The translations under genes and the position numbers were made by a program. DNA of 46,484 nt from Priapulus caudatus. Taxonomy: Eukaryota; Priapulida; Priapulimorpha; Priapulimorphida; Priapulidae. Shown here piece after piece: positions 2,929 to 37,900 of the stretch. Position 1 is the stretch's first letter. Each line of letters begins with the position of its first letter. The notes beneath the pieces were generated by a model. It worked only from the letters and a program-made list of their open reading frames with translations, ran no database searches and was not told the DNA's origin. The DNA lies in NCBI RefSeq assembly GCF_000485595.1, contig NW_014577305.1, positions 225,671-272,154 on the forward strand, given 5' to 3'.

Positions 2929-5900
2929 TTACGGCGAATCATCCGAGATAGGCCCCCCTGAATGCTCCCCAGAGTGAGCAAGCTCGGTCATCGTGCTGTC
3001 ACCTAACATGACCTCTTCACTATGCGTGACCTTTGGGCAATGTGTGTGCTCCGTGCCGTGTGTGACCTCTGTGCCATGTGTGACCTCTGCATCGAGCATG
3101 ACTTCTGCATCAAGCATGAACTCTGTGCCGTGCGTGACCTCTGTGTCGTGCATGACCTCTGGACTGTGTGTGACCTCTGTGTCGTGCATGACCTCTGGAC
3201 TGTGTGTGACCTCTGTACCGTGCATGACCTCTGGACTGTGCGTGACCTCTGTACCGTGCATGACCTCTGGACTGTGCGTGACCTCTGTACCGTGCATGAT
3301 CTCTGGACTGTGCGTGACCTCTGCACCATGCGTATCATCATCATTATCCTGCTGGTCAGCTAGGTCCTGCAGCAGCCTGCTGATTGTGTGGCTGATTGGC
3401 TGCGTCGGTACAAGTGACATTGACGCGAAACTCCGCGTGTCATCTGCAAACTGCGGTAGCTGGTCGGGTAGCTTAAAACCTGCGTTCAGCCCTGTGTCAA
3501 ATAGAGAACACACTGAGCTAAATACTACACATACGGCACCATTACCGCTTCATACTCTGAAGCGAGACTGAAGAATAAGCCAATGGCAACGTGAGTATTT
3601 TAGAGTAGAGGTTTTTACCTGTATACTCTGCATATGATTATATTCACTCACATTACCACCACCATGAACCAAAACCAAGAAATCTGTATGCACCCAACTA
3701 TTACTATTACTCGGTCAGTGCTACAATATTACATCATGAAGAAAACTCACCTGTTTTCTGATAGAAAAGAATGTAAGCATTATTATGGTCTTCGTATTGT
3801 GGCTCCCTCTTGGTAAGGGTGTCATCATTACAGAAAAACCACTCATCAGATAGTAGGTGCTTGGTATAAGATGTATAATGACCAGCGTTTGGCCCTACAA
3901 TCGAGGAGATACGGTACGATGTAAATTAAACCCACAAACCTCAGGTTCAATCGTAAAATTGAATTGTGAAATGGTTATGCTATACACATGCTAATTATGT
4001 CTATTATAACACACTCAAGGATTTTTAAACTTTAAATGTATGTTGCTAACAACTACGAATAAACTATGCTTTACAGAGTAATGGTTCCACTTAACGCTGT
4101 TTTCATATGTTGGAAAACGTGCCTGAACAGGAAACATACCTCCAAAATGGCAGACACAGCTGTGCAGATCATAGACAAAGTCGTTTTCTTTGTGCGTTGC
4201 TGAAATGAACTGTGAGAGGTCTAGCTGCTCCAGAGGGAAAAGGACCGTGTCTTCCAACTTCAGACTAGTCAGGTCATAAAACACAAACCTGACAGCAAAT
4301 ATACAGAGAGCATTATTTAGAATAACAAGCAATGTACTAAATATCTTCCAAACCAAATCTCTTCCCTTTCTCTTAGAGGTATTGTCAATATTACAAGTTA
4401 CTGAGTGATGCTTGTGACGTATACAGTCACAACATACATTAAACTGACTAATATAGAGCAAGATTAAACACAACTATATGTGACAGCAGGAATAAGATAA
4501 TAACAGCCTGTTATCTTATTACTGGTTATATCCATAACGAAATTCAATTTACAGTACTTGTCAACCAACACCTATTATTGCATGTAATAACAATAATTAT
4601 ATGTAAAGAAAGCATTATATATTAAACAACACTACACAGCCCTGTTTGACATCACCTTCTTTAAAAATCTGTTTTTAAGCAGGTTAGTTCTTTGCAAGTT
4701 TAGATTGTGGTTAGGTCATTCTAAATGAATGAATAAATAAATAAAAATATATATTAATCCACCACATATACATTAGGTAGAAATGATCTCAAAGCGTTCA
4801 TTTACACCTGATATACACTACATTTGCACCTATTTGTGAAACTGTTGTGCTGTGCATTATGTCAAACACCTTTTTAAATAGATGATAAGTGTAGGAGGAT
4901 AACGCCAAATGGTCATCGTCTTCTCTGCTCTTTGGTTTTGCTGACACTGAGGGCAGTACCAAGGGTTATGCTCATCCAGACTCTCACTGTAATTAGTAAA
5001 ACATCCAATATAGAATTCAAATGACAATAACTATTACATCACCCTGAAAGTTGAGAAGGTAATGCACATGTAATTGCCTTCATCTCTAACGTGATGGTAT
5101 AGTTTAGAGGCCACACACTTTTAGTCCCTACAATCAAGCGTTCGTAAGATATATCTGATTGAAAATGATGATCGTTTAGCCTAGTCTTATCTCGTCCAAT
5201 TGCAGAGATTATTGCTTGTGCACGAACTATAAAATGGCCACATATAGACTAACACAAATGTGCACACATATACACATTCACAAGAGACAGATAAATGATT
5301 CTGATTAGTTTCCATATTGGTTGTCATAATGCTAATGATATTAATAAATATCAATAATAAAAAAATAAAAAAACAAGATTACCACAAGCCAGAGAGCAGA
5401 ATGTTACTACTATCTACACGGATTTACAAATATTATTAATGAAGGCAGAGTTATAAGCAATGACAATAACCCTCCCCCAACCACTGAGAAATGTACTGCT
5501 CCTCACTGAATAGGAAACAAAAACAAAACAAAAGAAAACTGAAAAGGAACTGATAGAGGGACGCGTAGAAACGCAGCGACACCTTTCGGAAAAAGCCTCA
5601 AAGCAATCCTGAAGGTCTACGGGTTTCTCGCCCCTCCGGTCGACGACAGACTTGTGATCGGCGCAACTCGACAGCAGCTCGGCGATGCTGGCGACGGGGT
5701 CGATGAACGTGACGGTCAGGTGGTCACCGGGCATGAAGATCACCTCCGCGTCTCTGGACAACGGGCAGCCGGGGCAGCGGCGAGTGAACATGCAGCGTGA
5801 GCAGTTCTGACCCTGTCGTGAAAACTGCGCGTCAGAGGCAAGTGCGAGACACGACCGGACACGGGTTATCACCTCGATTATCATCTATTATCACATTATA

Positions 5901-8900
5901 TTATATATTTACCTTTATTTATTACCTCTGCCAGGGGCGTGGCGGAAGTTATGTTTTCACCGGCGAATGTTTGAGTGTTGGTTTGTGTGTTTGTGAACAT
6001 GCACGTTTCAGTTCACTTCCGCTAGGTGTGCTGGCTATAGACTTACAAACACGCAAACACAGGCTAAGAGGCAACCACAGTCCTCCTCCACCTACACGCT
6101 CACACTAATCCGAATCCAATTAATTATTTAATTAATTAATTAATTAATTAATTTTTCCACTTGATTAATTAATTAATAAAAAATTCCACATTGAGAGAAT
6201 TCAGCTGCCATGGCGGAGGTCTGTGCTCTCCGAGTGCTCTAGTTAGTTTTTGTTATTGTTGTTGTTGTAACAGAAGTTGGATTATTATAGGTGTCTGTGA
6301 TTGATCCTGTACAGACAGCCCAAGCCTGCACTACACGTGTGTTTCTACATGTATTAGGTACCTGTGCGTCAGTAAGACTAATGGTAAAGTCCTCTAGATG
6401 AGGCATCAGGCTGTTCACGTAGTCATAGAGCTTCTGTGGAGTGAGCCTGCCGGGCAGGTATGCAACCCTTGGATTGCCAAACCGCGTGAATTTCTTACTG
6501 CCGGCGGACTGTCTTCGGAAAACTATACACATTGGTATAGTCCTGAAATCACAATGTGCAATGCTAATCAAGACTGTAGTAGCAATGTTAGCATGACATG
6601 CATACACAGTTAGAAAAAGGAAATTATATTCCATTCAATACGTATTGACATACAAGGTACAGTGATTAAAGTCTGTCAATGATAGGAAATAAATGAAACA
6701 CATCCCATAGCAAGTCTTCACGATGTACATGAGCCATCACCTTATCTTTGGCTTGTAATCAGCTAATTTGTGCAGAGGTACATATGCCTCGGGCCCAATC
6801 AATTCGCTGCAGACTGGGCAGGGCAAATTCGTATCTCCATAATGCTTGCACGACATCTAAAAAGATTCAATATGTAATCAGTTATTTAATAAAAAACCTA
6901 TCCTTTTCCGTTAGGCTTGATAACCATTGTGCTAAAACATTTTTTCAAGCTTTGAGATAGACAAAACATCAAAATCCTACGATAGTAGAGACAAACGTTA
7001 CAGCGATAAGTGACAAACGGTTACGTTGGTATCGGTTTTGAATCATCCGAAACGTCACGCGCTCACGAACCGCACGTCCTACACGATTCGCTGCGGTTTA
7101 CCTCGATGCAGATCTGGCACAGCGTACAGCCACACTCCGCGTGTATGAACAGCTCAACGTCCGGCTTTTCCTCGAGGCATATTGCACAGGACCGCCACTG
7201 CTCGATGTGGCGCCCGCTCCGAGACGCCGCACTCGTGTCAAGCACTGCCGTGCCGCCGCATCCCTTGCTGCCGCCGCTGCCACCGCCAACGTCCCTGCTG
7301 CCGCCGGCATCGTCGGGGTTGTCGCTAGACCCGCCCGGTTCGCCATCGCAGCCCGCCTCGGACGACCGACGCTCGCGCGAACTGCCGACGGGGTCGGGGT
7401 CGGGGATCGAGTCGACGCGTGGTGGGGACGGGAGCGTCGGACTGCCGGCGACTGGCTGCAGCCTCATCTCGAACGCGTGGATCGCGCGCGATGCGTCGTT
7501 GACGAGCCACAGCAGCGTGCCGTCGTCCTGGAAATGCCGCCAGCCGACCGCCATTAGCTCCGACCGCGAAACACCCGACTCCTTGCATTGCAAACCCGAA
7601 AATCTAACACGCTGGGAAATCGGGGAGGAATTCTAATGCTACGCTTACCACACGATACAATACTTACCCATAGTGTAATAAGTTAATTATCAAGAAGTGC
7701 TGTCATTCTAAAACTGACACTGGCCCTCCGACTGTGAGCCCCACTTATATTGCAAACCCAAAAACTAACACGCTGAGAAATCGGAGAGAATTCCAATGCT
7801 ATACTTTCGATAAAATACAATAATTACTCAAGGTATCTTACTGCTTTAAGATAAACTGTCATGTACAGCAAAATTCCCAGGACACAGGTCAAACTGATTT
7901 AAAATGGGAAAGCAGATAATGCAGTTACATGCGCGATGTGGTAGTGACTTACCAGAAATCTTGAGACGTGGTTTTCAACCACCTCAGCAAGTATGATCTC
8001 AAGCGAACCATGGTCCTGTTCTAGCACCTCCAGCAGAGAAATTTTAAGGTCCCTTACGTTGTCCATCTTTTTTAGTGTTAGCAAATATCTCATTGGTTGT
8101 TGTCCATCACAAGGTTGGAATATCACAGCTAGAAAATCAGTACACTCAAATTACATCGAGTAAATATGCCATTTTCAGTGAATGAAAATCTCATCACAAA
8201 AACACATTTCAAGGGGCTTTGATACATGCATATGCAACTCCCAGTGTTTCAACTAGTATGTATGTTGAACAATGTTGTACGATGTAATGAGTAGAGCACT
8301 ACTGATTGCTAAAACCACTTAATATTTAAATGAAACTTGTTATAATAAATGTATATCCAGGTTTGACATGTCACAAGTTTTGCCACGAAACAAATAATGA
8401 AACATGCATATACACATTTAATAAATATTGTATAAATACTGTAACACCTTATGGCAGTCAAGCACGTGTTAATAGACATGTTTATAGAATGAACCCGTAT
8501 ATATAGGACACCTTTTTCATTTCCCTCTTCGTCATACAGTGAAACCTCTTCTATGAAACGGACACCTGTCTATACAGGACAGACACTTTTACAGTTTTCC
8601 TCGAGTGACCCTTATATACAGGTTCGACCATACACAAAAAACGTGTGAATCGAAGATCGAAGAAGAACAGAAAATCGTAAACAACCAACTGCGACAAAAC
8701 GCGTCAAGCAGACTCTTCACTTTGCGAGCGACGACGCACCATGCTTTTGAACTGTCCCTGAAACGTGTCGACGACGACGGACTTGTGCTTCGAGTGGTGC
8801 TTCCACCACGCCGCGTCGGCCTCCTCCGCGTCGAGGTCGGTCGTGGACGGCTGCGTGGTCCCGCCGCCGCCGCTGCTGCATCCCACGTCCTCGCTGTTCT

Positions 8901-10688
8901 CGCACGAGACGTCCGACGTCGCCACGGCGACGCGGTCCGGCGACGACTGCGGCGGCGCGCGCACGGCGTTCTTGAAGCGCTTCTGCAGCGCTGCCGGCAC
9001 CCTCTCTTCGCCGTTGCTGTCGCCGTCGTCGTCATCGTCGAAGCAACGGTTGCGCTTGCAGTTGTTCGCGGTGAATGCGTTGCCGAGTTCAGCCGCCGTC
9101 GTCGTCATCATTGTCGCCGGCTTGCCGCGCGGGTCGGCCACCACGTCGGACCGCCGCGCGTGCAGGTTGACGTCCTTCACCCGCGGGCAGGGCATCATCT
9201 TGCAGATCGTGCACGGGTACGTGCCGCCGTGCAGGTTGTCGAAGGTGAGCGGCGGCGTCGGCGCGGGGCGGCCGGGCGAGCGCGCAAACTTGTCGCTGTG
9301 CGTGACGCCGCGCGCGTCCTCGGTGACGAGCACGTTCGTGTTCGCGACCTTCACGTCCTTCCGGTAGAACTCCTCGATGCCCGCCGGCAGGATCCCCTCG
9401 GCGTTGTTCGCCGCGAGCTCGTTCTTCTCGCGACCGCCCGGTGGCGGGGGCGGCACATCGAAGAGCTTCTTCGCGTCCGTCAACGTCGCCACGCCGGCGC
9501 GCTCGTTTCTGTCGACTTCCGGCACCGCGGGGATTGCTCCCGGGAAGGTTCCAGAGAGTTTATCCTCGGTGGCATCAGGAGGATCGATCCCGCCGCTGCG
9601 GTCCGTCGAGTCGAGCGCGACTGCGGACAGCAGGTTGGATTTTATGTCGATCATCGTGACGCCGAGGGACAGCTGAGCGTCGGAGCTCTGCACGGAGACG
9701 GACGACTCGTTGCTGTCTTCCTCCATGTCCTGCCGCTGTGCCGAGCACGTCGCCGGCGAACGCTCGACGGCACAGTTGTTGTACGTGCATGCGTCCTGCG
9801 GCACTGCGGCGGCGGCGTCGCAGCACGCATTGCCGTCGTCCGGCGGCGTGTCCGGCTGGCTCGATGGGTGATTAGACATGAAGCTCTTCGCAGACGCAAG
9901 ATTGAGATCTTCGTGCAGCGAATCCAGCATGAGAGCGAGAAACTCCTGAGAGTCGTGCTGCAAGCAGGCCAAGAAGAAACGTCAGCGCAGGTAGGCCAGC
10001 GATGACTGCCAGAAAAGTGGGAAGTCATATACCGATACTAGCGTTTTACCACCAATATAGATCCTAGCTTGTATGCAGAGAAATCAAAGTATGGATAGTA
10101 CTCGAGTTGCGAATGTATCGGATACCAGATTGTCATTCTTAAGTTGAATGCTGAGAACTTGAAACACTATTAGGAGAGCAGTGGTTTGGTTGGTACATGC
10201 AGCTCTCTAGTTGAATAGTGGAATATATTGAAATAAGTTCGGATAGCATCATTCGTAGGCACAGATGTGCGTAACTCGTTAACAGACTCTGGAAGCATGA
10301 GGATTAAACCACCCTCACCTGTCGACAGCCGCTGAACTGAGGAAACGTGTTTCCGAGGCAATTCTTGAATTCGGTCGGCGTGATCGTGTACTTATCCCCC
10401 TTCCACACGCTGACGACGAGCCGCGCCAAGTGGCCCGTCAGGGAATCCTTTGTGTTTGCGTCCATCTCAAAGTCTTCAAGAAAGTACTTCACCAACGCAC
10501 TGCAGTTCAGCAAGCACTGTAGAGCAGAGTTCATGTAGCAAGTGTTCCCAAGGTTGCGCAGTCCACACATGCCTGGCACTATGGCACGATCTTCTGCGTA
10601 AGAAATATTCATGAGTTAAATGGACGCCCTGAACCTACCTCTCAAGATATATTTTGTTAGCTTCAATAATATATATATATATATAGAA

Positions 10689-10721
<33 letters not shown>

Positions 10722-11842
10722 AAATAGACACACGGAGAAAGAGAGTTATACAAAAAGAGTTAGAAAGGCAGAGAGTGGGTGCATTATAGAGAGAGACATG
10801 GTGATTTAGAGAATTTAAAGGTTACATCAAATTATACAAAGTCAAATGCACACTGCTACATGTCGAGTTTTATTTCTGAGCTGAACAATTTACCAGAATC
10901 GTAGAAGTGAAGCATGCTACTGTCATCAGCAAAGATGGCATCTTGAGTAGGACTGCTGTACGGTGCTGCAATAACGAAGACGTCGCTCATTATTACTACG
11001 ACACATTCTTACTCGAAAAACATCAAAATTATAAAAACGTTTCATAACATATCATCAATAGTCATCATGAGACTACAAGATGAGCTTGAAAAATCAATGT
11101 TACCTGAAACACCAAGGTCCAAATTAGGCATGTCAAGGTCAGGCATGGTTTCCATGTCATCGCGATCAGATTCAAACATGCTACCCATCCACATCACATT
11201 GGACGATTGCCCATTAAAGTCTTCGGGAAACATGTCTTCGGTTGGAGCATCCACAGTGCTGGCCTAATAATGAATAAGATGTTACCACGTACATAACATA
11301 TTAAGCTAGAACAGGATGGAACATTTTTCGTCATGTCATCAGAATACATAAAAATACAACACCAACCTCTTATTTTAGCACTACATTTATGGTCAACAGG
11401 GCAAAATTAGTGAGTTCAATAATATTAGCTATCACTATACGCAATATAGTGATCAAAGAAAAATAATTCTACACATGTATACAGCAGTGTTTTTTTTTTA
11501 GTTTCCTGATACAACCATAAATCTACTAGCACAGACACAGAGATCAATTCAAGCACATTTGTCCTGCAGGTGTCAGGGAAGCCATCAGATCTTATCAGCT
11601 TACTAATAGTCATTGCGAACCTCAACTGCAGATATCAGCAGGAGTTTCTTCCTAGTATAATATTCAATCTACATCATCTGGCAGTCTGACAAGCAGCAAC
11701 AATAATACATATATCTACACGTCATTTGCGATGCTAATATGTAAGCACAACAACCAACCTCTTTTAGTGCTTCTGAATCAATATCACATTCAGAAGCATA
11801 ATCATCAACATTGAAGTGTGTCTGATGGGATGAATAATCCAT
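2929..11842 (-). CDS. Ubiquitin-specific protease (USP, C19 family) with RING-like insert; 14 coding exons found, one missing
   Basis: Deubiquitinating cysteine protease. Exons, 5' to 3' on the minus strand: 11842-11759, 11263-11104, 10965-10894, 10593-10319, 9957-8740, 8128-7953, 7581-7102, 6856-6741, 6542-6362, 5812-5583, 4986-4870, 4288-4140, 3894-3751, 3491-2929 (TAA). All have GT-AG sites, and phases agree at every junction except 8740/8128, which needs one unfound exon. The Met at 11842 is chosen for its context (A at -3, G at +4) and sits in an exon with a good acceptor; an upstream exon cannot be excluded. The Cys box reads GLRNLGNTCYMNSALQCL (Cys about residue 124), then SGCRQHDSQEFLALMLDSLHE. 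A ubiquitin-like segment is in 8128-7953. Zinc-ribbon pairs are CSRC/CPGC and WYCPQC. LKRFVFYDLTS, GHYTSYTKH and WFFCNDDT supply the catalytic His and Asp/Asn. The core resembles USP4/15/32. About 1320 residues without the missing exon. I cannot assign a vertebrate orthologue. Confidence 0.88.
3135..3314 (-). repeat. 36-bp tandem repeat, five copies, inside the last USP exon
   Basis: Five full 36-bp units (starts 3135, 3171, 3207, 3243, 3279), with decayed half units on both sides (about 3020-3340). Each unit encodes GTEVTHSPEVMH or a close variant on the minus strand, itself made of two six-residue halves (EVTH / EVMH). Because 36 is a multiple of three, copy number can change without a frameshift. 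The repeat lies after the catalytic domain, in the C-terminal tail. Confidence 0.85.
5925..6244 (+). mobile_element. Interspersed repeat starting CTGCCAGGGGCG, copy 1
   Basis: Partner of 27512-27827, same orientation. It fills most of the USP intron between exons 6542-6362 and 5812-5583. Non-coding. Confidence 0.75.
6741..7581 (-). other. RING-like C8 zinc finger inserted in the USP catalytic domain
   Basis: Two exons (7581-7102 and 6856-6741) join at phase 0. The first ends with WRSCAICLEEKPDVEL, then HAECGCTLCQICIE; the second begins MSCKHYG and reaches LPCPVC. The cysteine spacing is C-x2-C-x14-C-x1-C-x2-C-x2-C-x14-C-x2-C, which is RING-like with Cys in place of the usual His at position four. 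It follows the ubiquitin-like segment and a low-complexity Gly/Ser/Pro linker, and precedes the zinc ribbon and the His box. In USP19 a MYND finger occupies a comparable place. RING fingers usually recruit E2 enzymes, but this one could be purely structural. The spacing and splice phase are seen; ligase activity is not shown. Confidence 0.75.
8740..9957 (-). other. Large GC-rich exon of the USP gene, mostly disordered insert
   Basis: A single exon of 406 codons, phase 0 at both ends. It starts with the conserved HDSQEFLALMLDSLHEDLN and ends with VVVDTFQGQFKSM, two motifs that lie close together in other USPs. Between them are about 340 residues rich in Asp, Ser, Pro and Ala with short acidic runs, plus one possible zinc knuckle (CTICKMMPC). 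The exon is far richer in G and C than the AT-rich introns around it. That composition creates long spurious open frames on the other strand and in other frames. Confidence 0.75.
10668..10735. repeat. TA and GA microsatellite
   Basis: A short (TA)n followed by interrupted (GA)n, in the USP intron between exons 10965-10894 and 10593-10319. Confidence 0.9.
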
Positions 11843-12716
11843 ACTAAGGTGACTGCTGAAACAAAATTCTACTGTTAGTTACATGTAACATTTATATTCA
11901 ATGCTTTCATAACTTCAGCTCTATCAAATGGCTAATGAGAATCACATACATTCCAGATTAAAAATGGTTTTTACTGTTAAATGATGAAGCCAGATGTTGC
12001 TAGATTGGAGAAATCAAGCGAAAGAAATTTCAAAAATTACGAAACTCAGAACTGAGACAAGAATAGGTCTAATCTGACTCGACTCGAGTATCAGTCTCAT
12101 CTAGTCTCGAGTGACAGAGTCATCTAGTCTGAGATATACTAATATTGAGCTGCTCTGACCATAAAGGGGAATCTAGCACATAGAGGTCTATGCCAACAAA
12201 CATCCTAATCATTTTCAGTGGGGTAACATACCAAACTGCAGTGTCAACTGTTGATTATACAGCTCTAGTCCCACTTCTTTCCCAGTAACATGCTTATCAG
12301 TGATGGTATCATTGTGGGAACTTCACTGAATGAGACTTGGACCTTCAAGACAAAAAATAATAACACCGAAGTATTTAAAAGTCAAATATCCAATTTTAAT
12401 ATTTTATAACAGTAATATTGATATGAAATATTGTGTAAGTACCCTCATACTCCCTCTAGTCTATAGCCTAACTCAATCTCTAAGTAAGAATTTTATATAC
12501 ATTTTGCCCCTGTATCTAGGGAAAAAGAGCAATTAAATAAATAGCCCATTATTTCAGAAGTTTCTCGCATAAGTCAAAGATATCTTAGTTTAAGCATTTG
12601 CCACCAGAGTACTACACAGAAGTTCTACACCTAGCCCTAGGTGGAAATTTTTGCTGTTTGACAAAAATCTTTGTTTTACTACGATGCTCACGTCCAGTTC
12701 AATGCTCCATGCTTTC

Positions 12717-15463: not shown

Positions 15464-15473
15464 NNNNNNNNNN
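15464..15473. other. Assembly gap (10 N)
   Basis: A run of ten N bases, probably a placeholder of unknown true length. It sits between opposed copies of a retrotransposon 3' end, a structure that commonly breaks assemblies. Confidence 0.99.
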
Positions 15474-17806: not shown

Positions 17807-18202
17807 TTACAAAAATACAAAAGGGCCAATCGAGAGGCCCTTTTTTTCATCCAAGTCGCACAACCACTGAAAGTCCCTAAATGGTCTCCCGTTCTTGGCC
17901 AATGCATGGGCATTCCTGAACAAAATTTTGAGCTCAGAATGCTGCGTGTGAAGAAGATCGACCGCGACATTAGCAGGGGCTTTTTCCAGATTCTGTACAG
18001 CCTTTACAGGATCAGAAGCACATGCGTGTGCCTCAGACAGCTCATGGTATAGGCTATAGGATATTGATTCTCGCTTATAATTGTTACAGCCGTCAATAAA
18101 GGTGCTGCTTCGCTTAATCAGTCCTCGACTTTTTAGGGTGCCGATGTGCTCCACACACCAAGCACACTTCATCCCCTCTGTTGTGTTTTGTTCCTCGTAC
18201 AC
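17807..18202 (-). pseudogene. hAT/ZNF862-like transposase fragment (TTF-type zinc finger region)
   Basis: A 131-residue open frame. It has a CAWC pair near residue 15, then FIDGCNNYKRESISYSLYHE and a His-rich continuation (ELSEAHACAS), as in TTF-type fingers of hAT-derived proteins. A later segment, AHALAKNGRPFRDFQWLCDL, fits the helix that follows the finger in ZNF862-like proteins (pattern A-x3-AKxxxPFxDF). It ends shortly after that, with no RNase-H-like catalytic core, so it is a truncated remnant. Confidence 0.6.
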
Positions 18203-18240
18203 TGTCCACAGAAGGCTGTGAGTTCAAACCCCGGCCGGGG

Positions 18241-34587: not shown

Positions 34588-34992
34588 TTAGTCTAATTAT
34601 AAGTGGTCATTAGTCACATCTAACATCACTGATAGTGAGAGAGCATGATAATGCAAATGGTAGCGCAAATTTGCCACTGGTGTAAAAGTAGCCACATGTA
34701 CTGTTGTTACACACAATTTTAACATTTTACTTTTAGAATTGGCTGTCGTACTTTTAGAAACCGTTGCAGGGCGAAGCTTGGTTTTACCAATTTACCCCAC
34801 TGCTCTGCCACAGGCAAACGTGAGGCCTATGCTGAGGCTAGTAGCAGACACAAGTTGTCGCAATTAAAGCATTTCTCTGTCCACCACTCGCGTCTCTATA
34901 CTCGAAACGAATTCCCACACGGTATTGAAGTCGTGATCTGGACATCCGAATGAAACGACCTTATTTCCTCTTTCGTCCGCGCTCAGACGACG

Positions 34993-37900
34993 ATGGGCAA
35001 GCACTCCGACTCGGACGTCGAGTATCGCAGGCGAAAAAGCCGCAAGAGCACGAAGAAGCGCAGGAGCCGATCGCGGTCGGCGAGCTCGAACGGCGACGAC
35101 GCGGCGGCGCGCGGCAAGTCGAGCCGCGGCAAGCGCAGGTCGCGCCGGCGGTCGCGCAGCCGCAGCGCCGAGCGCTCGAGCAAGTCCAAGCGCAGGTCAA
35201 GCTCGAGCTCGCGAAGGTCGCGCGACCAACGGTCGAGGTCGTCGGAGCGGCGGTCAAGGTCGCACGACCGGCGGTCGAGGATGCGAGAGAGGAGGTCAAG
35301 GTCACGAGATCGACGATCGAGGTCGCGCGACCGGAGGTCACGGTCCCGAGAGCAGAGATCGAGGTCGTATGACAGGAGGTCGAGGTCTCGTGACCAGAGG
35401 TCGAGGTCCCGAGATCGAAGGTGGTTATCACAATGCTGAAGGAATAGGTGGATCAAAATGTTGTAGACTGCATGTGCACATTCACTGTTTCTACAACATA
35501 TTGCTGGAAATTTCCTGACAAATATCAGATAGTGCCACAAAATCACGTTCGGTATATTTGAGATTAATGATTGTGTTGGCTGATCGGTGTAATTTTAAAC
35601 TACCGTTGATTGTTATATGTAGAATACTGTAATATTTAATTATACTACATATTTATAGATCTCGAAGCAAAGAGAGACAGCGAAAAAATGTAGAAACAAA
35701 AAGTTCACATCGCGATGCCAGGAGTAGAAGCAGTAGTCCTGAGGATAAGGATTTGAATGAGGATAACGTAACAATGTCCAGGTTGGTACAAGCTATTGAT
35801 TCCATATACTTAAACTGCTAGAACTAGTGATGCAACTTTTGCTAGTACAATACTATTGACTGGATCTATTATTATTGTTGATATTACAGAATTATTTTCT
35901 TGCATTATTTTGCAATTCGATAAAATTGATTGTTGAAAATTCAAGAATACTCATATAAATTTAGTATTTTTTCACTCTGTTTAGTTTAGTAATAGTGAAT
36001 TTTGTTATTTAAATTTTATCTAGAGATCCTGCCTCAGAAATCTCAGGATTTGATGAGATGGTATGTATTTTAAACATGCAAGATTTCAGTAAATTTATCT
36101 CGTTCTATCAAACATGTAACAATGATGGCTTTGCAAGCATGTTGATTGATGAGTCAATGATGACTAGCAAACACTTCATTTACAAAAGATGAGTCTCTAC
36201 TATGGTAATGTTTTTCAACATTTATATATTTTAATGAGTGAAACTTGTCATTCTCTTTACTGTCTCTATATTGTCTTTCATGATGATTGACTCATGGCTG
36301 TATATATCATTTCCTTTTAATTTAGACACGTGCTGAACAGAATAAAGTAAGAATGAAGCTGGCACTGCAGGCTGCAGGTAAGTGTAATATATATAAATAT
36401 ATATATAATTTATGGTAATGTCCATTCAGCCTCTTTTAAACCTGAATACAAGGACCTACAACAATTCAAGAATTTCCCCACTATTTTAGGCAATAAATTC
36501 AAACCTTGGTATTTTTACCACATGCATTGCACTGTACTATCATTATCTAGTCTTGTTCTAAAATTTTACTGTGATGGTGTGCTTTTGCAGTTGCCGCTGA
36601 TGAAGCATTGAAAGGACGAATAGGGCCGCAGCCTTTGTCAGCAGAAGAGCAAATGAAGAGGCAAATGTCTATAGACGATATAAACAAATCTGATTTCACT
36701 CCTTCCACTTTTAAGTCGACTCGCTCTGACCAGGTGGGTTTACCTCATAGGATATGAGGAAGGTAGACACGATTCAAAGTGTGTGTGGTTGTGTGATTAT
36801 CCTGCGTGCATGCATGTGGACGCGCATGGGCGTGTACGTAAATGCGTGCGTGCGTGCGTGCGTCACGCATGTGTGCGTGCGATTTAGTATGGGTAACTTA
36901 ACATTGTGATGATGACCTTCCTCTATAAGCTAAGAGGGACGCATAAAATGCAGGGCTATGAGGTCGATATGGACAGGAAAATGAATATTTTATGTGTTAA
37001 TTTAGGTTGTAAACTGAATAACATTAAATTGACTACGTCACGAATTTTCCATGGTAAAATTTGTAAAAAAAAAGGTCATTTTTTTACATTAAAAGTAAGA
37101 ACTAACGATACTAAATATATCCTCAAACTCTCACCTGATAAAAATGTTTTTACGTTGGTTAAATTTGCAAAAATCTAGACGATTTGGTAATTTCTGTACC
37201 CCCCACTATTCCCCCAGTACTGTTCAGATACTGGCGTCTCTCTGTTTTTTACCGGCAAATTATGGCATATAAAGAAGGTATATAAGCATGAAAAGTAAAC
37301 AGAAACACTAATTATATTTTCATACATTTTATTTTGTACAAATAACTCACAAATATACTACTTCATGGTGCTAGAAATTCGTGACGTAATCACTTTAAGC
37401 AGTTATTTTAAAGGTGAAAATGTGGCTTCGTAATGGTTGCTGTTACCTCATGTTCAAGCTGCTTTGCTCCTAGCCCCTAAACTCTTTATTACAAGTGACA
37501 ATTTGTTATGGAATCTGAAGAACCACCAAGCAAAGCATCATTTTCTGAAAGAACACCCTGTGACTGCTTGACTCCTACACCTCACATTGATGATAATTTA
37601 TAATACTTGATTTCAGAAGGTACAACCGACATCAATGGCTGGGCTTACAGGATCTAACAGTATGTCATCAGAGCATAGCCATGACAAGGCCATGTATGGA
37701 TTAGGCTCATCCCAGTCTGTCATACAACCTCTGGCATCCACTTTGAGTAGTAACAAGATTGTTTACCAGGACACTGATAACATAGCCCATGAAAGCGTAA
37801 GTAATACATGAGTCTTTGAGCGTGATCGATCATAAGGGTTGCATATATTATTAGAATAATATAAAGAATCTACTTGGTCTATTCAGTTCAGTCAAGAACA

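What the first reader, a model, noticed from the sequence alone, without database searches (positions are those of the whole stretch)
6741..7581. A RING-like finger spliced into the catalytic core of a deubiquitinase
Eight cysteines with RING-like spacing (C-x2-C-x14-C-x-C-x2-C-x2-C-x14-C-x2-C) lie between the ubiquitin-like segment and the His box of a USP. The two exons that build it join in phase, and every later exon to the stop is also in phase, so it is part of the enzyme. No human USP I know has this: USP19 carries a MYND finger in a comparable place and CYLD a B-box. If the finger binds an E2, one protein could both attach and remove ubiquitin. The fold and any activity are inference.
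Basis: partly seen in the sequence, partly recalled or inferred. Interest (0 to 1): 0.82.

Follow-up and report, generated by a model that had tools for sequence, protein, structure and literature searches.

The report
Deubiquitinase with a built-in RING finger
An animal enzyme that strips ubiquitin from proteins carries, inside its catalytic domain, a module of the type that ubiquitin-attaching enzymes use; related genes in many invertebrates have it in the same place, but what it does there is untested.

Summary
On the minus strand a USP-type deubiquitinase gene (exons within 11855-2929) carries eight cysteines, C-x2-C-x14-C-x-C-x2-C-x2-C-x14-C-x2-C (7188-7102 joined to 6856-6809), between a ubiquitin-like segment and the His box, in phase to the stop. 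It is not a one-off: 142 of the 145 related proteins listed in three searches carry the module, from molluscs, a brachiopod, nemerteans, echinoderms, hemichordates, amphioxus, insects, crustaceans and arachnids. The RING fold is supported by profile matches to RNF4 and TRIM RINGs and by a model of the nemertean finger (pLDDT 85.9) that matches RING and U-box structures. Corrections: the exon most likely starts at 7527, not 7581; the fourth cysteine is not the family's ligand (other residues in 71 of 112), while a histidine before the third cysteine is kept; and the window lacks an exon (about 94 bases) for the first half of the USP finger, which 141 of 145 relatives have. I found no paper on this family. 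Most likely mechanism, inferred: the RING docks an E2, making a single-chain ubiquitin editor. A non-catalytic docking RING is nearly as likely.

The parts
10894..11855 (-). exons a (11855-11759), b (11263-11104), c (10965-10894): N-terminal part, start codon not settled
   Evidence: splice sites and open frame
10319..10593 (-). exon d: catalytic Cys box GLRNLGNTCYMNSALQC
   Evidence: UCH positions 1-109, E 6.3e-29, for exons a-e
8740..9957 (-). exon e: HDSQEFL box, long variable linker, ends FQGQFKSM
8129..8739 (-). intron in which the exon for the first half of the USP finger (CxxC ... EPFMYL) is expected and not found
7953..8128 (-). exon f: start of the ubiquitin-like segment
   Evidence: beta-grasp order of strands and helix in the relative's model, residues 589-671 of P0003
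7102..7527 (-). exon g (corrected start): end of the ubiquitin-like segment, linker, RING ligands C1-C6
7102..7188 (-). RING, first part (C1 7188-7186, C2 7179-7177, His 7143-7141, C3 7134-7132, C4 7128-7126, C5 7119-7117, C6 7110-7108)
6809..6856 (-). RING, second part in exon h (C7 6820-6818, C8 6811-6809)
6741..6856 (-). exon h
6362..6542 (-). exon i: beta-rich segment after the RING
5583..5812 (-). exon j: CSRC-x5-CPGC and GDHLTV segment
4870..4986 (-). exon k: second half of the USP finger (NPWYCPQC) and YLKR
4140..4288 (-). exon l: catalytic domain
3751..3894 (-). exon m: His box GHYTSYTKH and NDD
2929..3491 (-). exon n: C-terminal tail with repeats, stop TAA

Best explanation
The gene belongs to a conserved bilaterian subfamily of ubiquitin-specific proteases in which a true RING domain sits in the catalytic domain, between the inserted ubiquitin-like domain and the second half of the catalytic fold (this structural part about 0.93, by homology and prediction). 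Its likely zinc ligands are C-x2-C / H-x2-C / C-x2-C / C-x2-C: the histidine precedes C3 instead of following it. Most likely mechanism (inferred): the RING surface docks an E2~ubiquitin, so one chain can promote ubiquitin transfer onto its bound substrate or itself while the USP site removes or trims chains, a single-chain ubiquitin editor. Shown: module, position, conservation, predicted fold, kept E2-groove residues. Inferred: zinc geometry, E2 binding, ligase activity, editing. The number below is for the whole statement, mechanism included.
For: In-phase exons. 142 of 145 listed relatives carry the module; in 78 chosen relatives seven RING cysteines are invariant. Profile of the RING against the PDB: RNF4 3.6e-6, TRIM5 9.3e-6, TRIM32 2.9e-5. 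30 of 30 members match zf-RING_2 at E <= 0.1; P0003 passes the zf-RING_UBOX cut-off; 14 of 115 rows bear a precomputed RING Pfam. AlphaFold2: RING region pLDDT 76-93 per ten residues in the whole protein, 85.9 alone; Foldseek rows are RING, RBR or U-box entries as far as titles tell. Ile or Val before C2 in 142 of 142 and Pro after C7 in 139 of 142; that these contact the E2 is recalled.
Confidence: 0.5

Rival explanations
1. The RING is real but not a ligase: a docking, dimerisation or regulatory module of the DUB, comparable to the MYND finger of USP19 or the B-box of CYLD (comparison recalled).
For: Linchpin Arg missing in 116 of 142; a ligand of the classical RING is replaced; other USPs carry zinc modules without known ligase activity (recalled; MYND and B-box named in the passage).
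Against: The E2-groove residues are kept in nearly all members (142 of 142 and 139 of 142), which a mere docking module would not need.
Confidence: 0.42
2. The window's copy is a broken or altered gene: it has truly lost the exon of the first finger half and no longer cleaves ubiquitin normally.
For: The exon is absent and the flanking phases do not fit.
Against: All other exons are open with good splice sites; a collapsed or dropped stretch in the assembly would look the same. I could not search the whole genome.
Confidence: 0.15
3. The eight cysteines are a chance or non-RING zinc fold, or exons of two genes joined by mistake.
For: The window segment alone scores weakly against Pfam.
Against: Same module at the same place in 142 of 145 listed relatives; predicted RING fold; in-phase junctions.
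Confidence: 0.03

Closest known systems
USP4 / USP15 / USP11 deubiquitinases
   Same: Best sequence matches among solved structures (USP11 6e-33, USP4 6.3e-33, USP15 1.5e-30); catalytic domain split by an inserted ubiquitin-like domain.
   Different: They carry an N-terminal DUSP and UBL (PMC4624187 section 3); no DUSP match in 6 RING-USP members. No RING is named in their architecture there.
USP19 (MYND) and CYLD (B-box)
   Same: A zinc module inside a USP catalytic domain (recalled; the modules are named in the list).
   Different: MYND and B-box are other zinc folds; no zf-MYND or zf-B_box match was listed for the window RING segment at E <= 1.
A20 (TNFAIP3)
   Same: Protease and a proposed ligase finger in one chain (PMC8066222 passage).
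   Different: OTU protease with A20-type zinc fingers outside the catalytic domain (partly recalled); the editing model is disputed in that passage. Here the protease is UCH/USP and the finger is a RING.
RNF4, TRIM5, TRIM32 RING domains
   Same: Best single-RING sequence-profile matches.
   Different: They have the C-x-H pair (RNF4 alignment); here the His stands before C3.
RING-C2 class (defined in plants)
   Same: The window spacing fits C-x2-C-x10-16-C-x1,2-C-x2-6-C-x2-C-x10-36-C-x2-C (PMC5240574 table passage).
   Different: The fourth Cys is not conserved in the family (41 of 112).

Membership tests
[quoted passage not shown]
   UCH 6.3e-29 (positions 1-109) and 3.6e-27 (133-254); GNTCYMN, GHYT and NDD present
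RING-USP subfamily (named here) | RING ligands between the ubiquitin-like segment and the His box | tested here: met
   window; 142 of 145 listed relatives
RING-USP subfamily (named here) | first half of the USP finger (CxxC ... PF) | tested here: inconclusive
   in 141 of 145 relatives; absent from the window as assembled, with a phase gap where an exon should be
RING domain | eight Cys/His ligands with RING spacing | tested here: met
RING domain | curated Pfam RING score | tested here: inconclusive
   window segment below cut-off; relative P0003 above zf-RING_UBOX cut-off, 26.1 against 25.2, 1 of 6 scanned
RING domain | RING fold | tested here: met
   predicted for relative P0003 only, not for the window's own finger:
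RING domain | two zinc ions in a cross-brace | not testable with these tools
   no coordinates or metal data
RING E3 ligase | E2 binding and ubiquitin transfer | not testable with these tools
   only groove residues counted
USP4/15/11 | N-terminal DUSP domain | tested here: not met
   no DUSP match in 6 relatives nor in the window's exons a-e
A20-type editor | OTU protease domain | tested here: not met
   protease domain is UCH

The most novel reading that the evidence does not exclude
An ancient bilaterian, single-chain ubiquitin editor: a USP whose catalytic domain holds an active RING with a relocated histidine ligand, able to attach ubiquitin through an E2 and to remove it, kept in spiralians, arthropods and invertebrate deuterostomes and missing from vertebrates.
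Probability: 0.35. Interest if true: 0.85.

Novelty: new variant of a known kind. Interest (0 to 1): 0.62.

Why it matters
If true, a writer and an eraser of ubiquitin are fixed in one catalytic domain and have been conserved since early bilaterians. It makes coupled ubiquitination and deubiquitination testable in one chain, offers a natural case of RING ligand rearrangement (His moved from after C3 to before it), and names a gene family that databases file under 'uncharacterized protein' or under differing USP numbers.

Tried and rejected
Rejected: chance cysteines or a non-RING zinc fold. Rejected: exon start 7581. Not adopted: the all-cysteine RING-C2 reading as the family's ligand set, because the C4 place is Gly in 42, Cys in 41, Phe in 21, Leu in 4, Val in 2 and Ala in 2 of 112. 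The His in the C6-C7 loop (KHYG) as eighth ligand is less likely: a His is found there in 110 of 142 and is missing from the wasp and ant rows. Note that the pattern demands a His before C3, so its presence in the matches is by construction; of the three misses, P0111 has the other cysteines without that His, P0032 is a gene model that ends the finger early, and P0115 is another USP. No candidate for the lost finger exon was found.

Led nowhere: a protein search restricted to 177 residues of P0006 gave 13 hits; fold searches with the whole model filled with USPs. Seven paper searches aimed at a USP with a RING listed nothing on this family by title or start of abstract; two searches found no paper; one search listed 20 of 626 and one search listed 15 of 17. 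It is weak. No annelid is named either.

Full report
What is in the sequence. The minus strand of 11855-2929 encodes a USP. With GT-AG exons a-n the first part (exons a-e) matches UCH positions 1-109 (E 6.3e-29) and the second (f-m) positions 133-254 (E 3.6e-27). The catalytic Cys box (exon d), the His box and NDD (exon m) are present. Between the ubiquitin-like exon f and the His box, exons g and h join in phase to give CAICLEEKPDVELFIHAECGCTLCQICIE|MSCKHYGDTNLPCPVC.

Corrections to the gene model. tblastn of the chiton and Lingula proteins starts the exon g match at 7527, where a good acceptor (ggcatttccag) lies in the same frame. More important, exon e ends in phase 0 and exon f needs one base before it. 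There, 141 of 145 relatives have the first CxxC of the USP finger followed by a PF motif. The matching exon, about 94 bases by the relatives' length, is not in the intron 8739-8129 nor in the window (best hits outside exon e are 12-23 residues long at E 0.024 to 0.11). Since everything else is open and spliced, I favour an assembly gap; loss in this copy is possible. One relative's gene model, P0061, also breaks off at this point.

It is a family. A search with the residues of exons f-m found 115 proteins; the best is 52% identical (chiton, 65% of the query). A pattern for C-x2-C, His, C-x4-C-x2-C, C-x2-C hits 112 of them. Over all 145 proteins listed in the three searches the count is 136, or 142 if one extra residue between C3 and C5 is allowed, as in five named decapod crustaceans and one unnamed protein. 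Named sources include chiton, abalone, oyster, octopus, Lingula, nemerteans, sea urchins, starfish, a brittle star, crinoids, acorn worms, amphioxus, cockroaches, crickets, ants, bees, aphids, thrips, damselflies, spiders, ticks, a sea spider, shrimps and crabs. Many are called uncharacterized; others bear differing USP numbers. Among 78 chosen relatives the RING cysteines C816, C819, C834, C839, C842, C857 and C860 (P0003 numbering) are invariant. No named vertebrate, cnidarian, fly, beetle, moth or nematode appears among the listed rows, but one search listed only 120 of its 254 hits.

Ligands. The place of the classical His after C3 holds Gly in 42, Cys in 41, Phe in 21, Leu in 4, Val in 2 and Ala in 2 of 112. 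A His stands before C3 in the matches (demanded by the pattern), as H-x2-C in 77 of 112, and one search lists it as at least 90% conserved. So the family-wide set is most simply C-C-H-C-C-C-C-C. The window has both the His and the extra Cys and formally fits RING-C2 (PMC5240574, table passage). The zinc geometry was not measured.

Mechanism. E2-groove positions are kept: Ile or Val before C2 in 142 of 142, Pro after C7 in 139 of 142. The linchpin place after C8 is Arg in 26 and Ser in 51 of 142. That these positions matter for E2 in known RINGs is recalled. I hold E2 docking and editing as slightly more likely than a docking-only RING, with no experiment behind either.

Known relatives. Nearest solved enzymes by sequence are USP11, USP4, USP15, then USP8 and USP2. 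USP4/15/11 carry DUSP and two UBLs (PMC4624187, section 3 read; other passages); 6 RING-USP members show no DUSP. A20 is the known case of a protease and a proposed ligase finger in one chain, with the model disputed (PMC8066222, passages). Seven searches of open-licence PMC papers showed no description of a RING inside a USP.

Verdict. Real, conserved, RING-type; the family appears undescribed in the papers searched; dual activity is an inference worth a simple assay.

Noticed in passing
8739-8129 (-): The exon for the first half of the USP finger, present in 141 of 145 relatives, is missing, and the neighbouring exons do not fit in phase: assembly gap or lost exon.
   Followed up: partly
3058-3331: 36-base tandem repeat, 7.6 copies, inside the last coding exon, in frame: the C-terminal tail carries a 12-residue repeat (VTHSPEVMHGTE type).
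   Followed up: no
7582-7627 and 7744-7788: Two direct-repeat pairs (35 and 21 bases, 86% identical, spacing 161-162) in the intron before exon g.
   Followed up: partly
34954-35436 (+): Open frame rich in RS/SR dipeptides, like an SR-type splicing protein; no Pfam match at E <= 0.01.
   Followed up: no
17810-18223 (-): Weak match to zf-C17orf113 (9.6e-5, below cut-off), perhaps a remnant of a mobile element.
   Followed up: no
5812-5583 (-): Conserved CSRC-x5-CPGC (four cysteines invariant in 78 relatives), possibly one more zinc site between the RING and the second finger half.
   Followed up: no
15464-15473: A run of ten N, the only N in the window.
   Followed up: no
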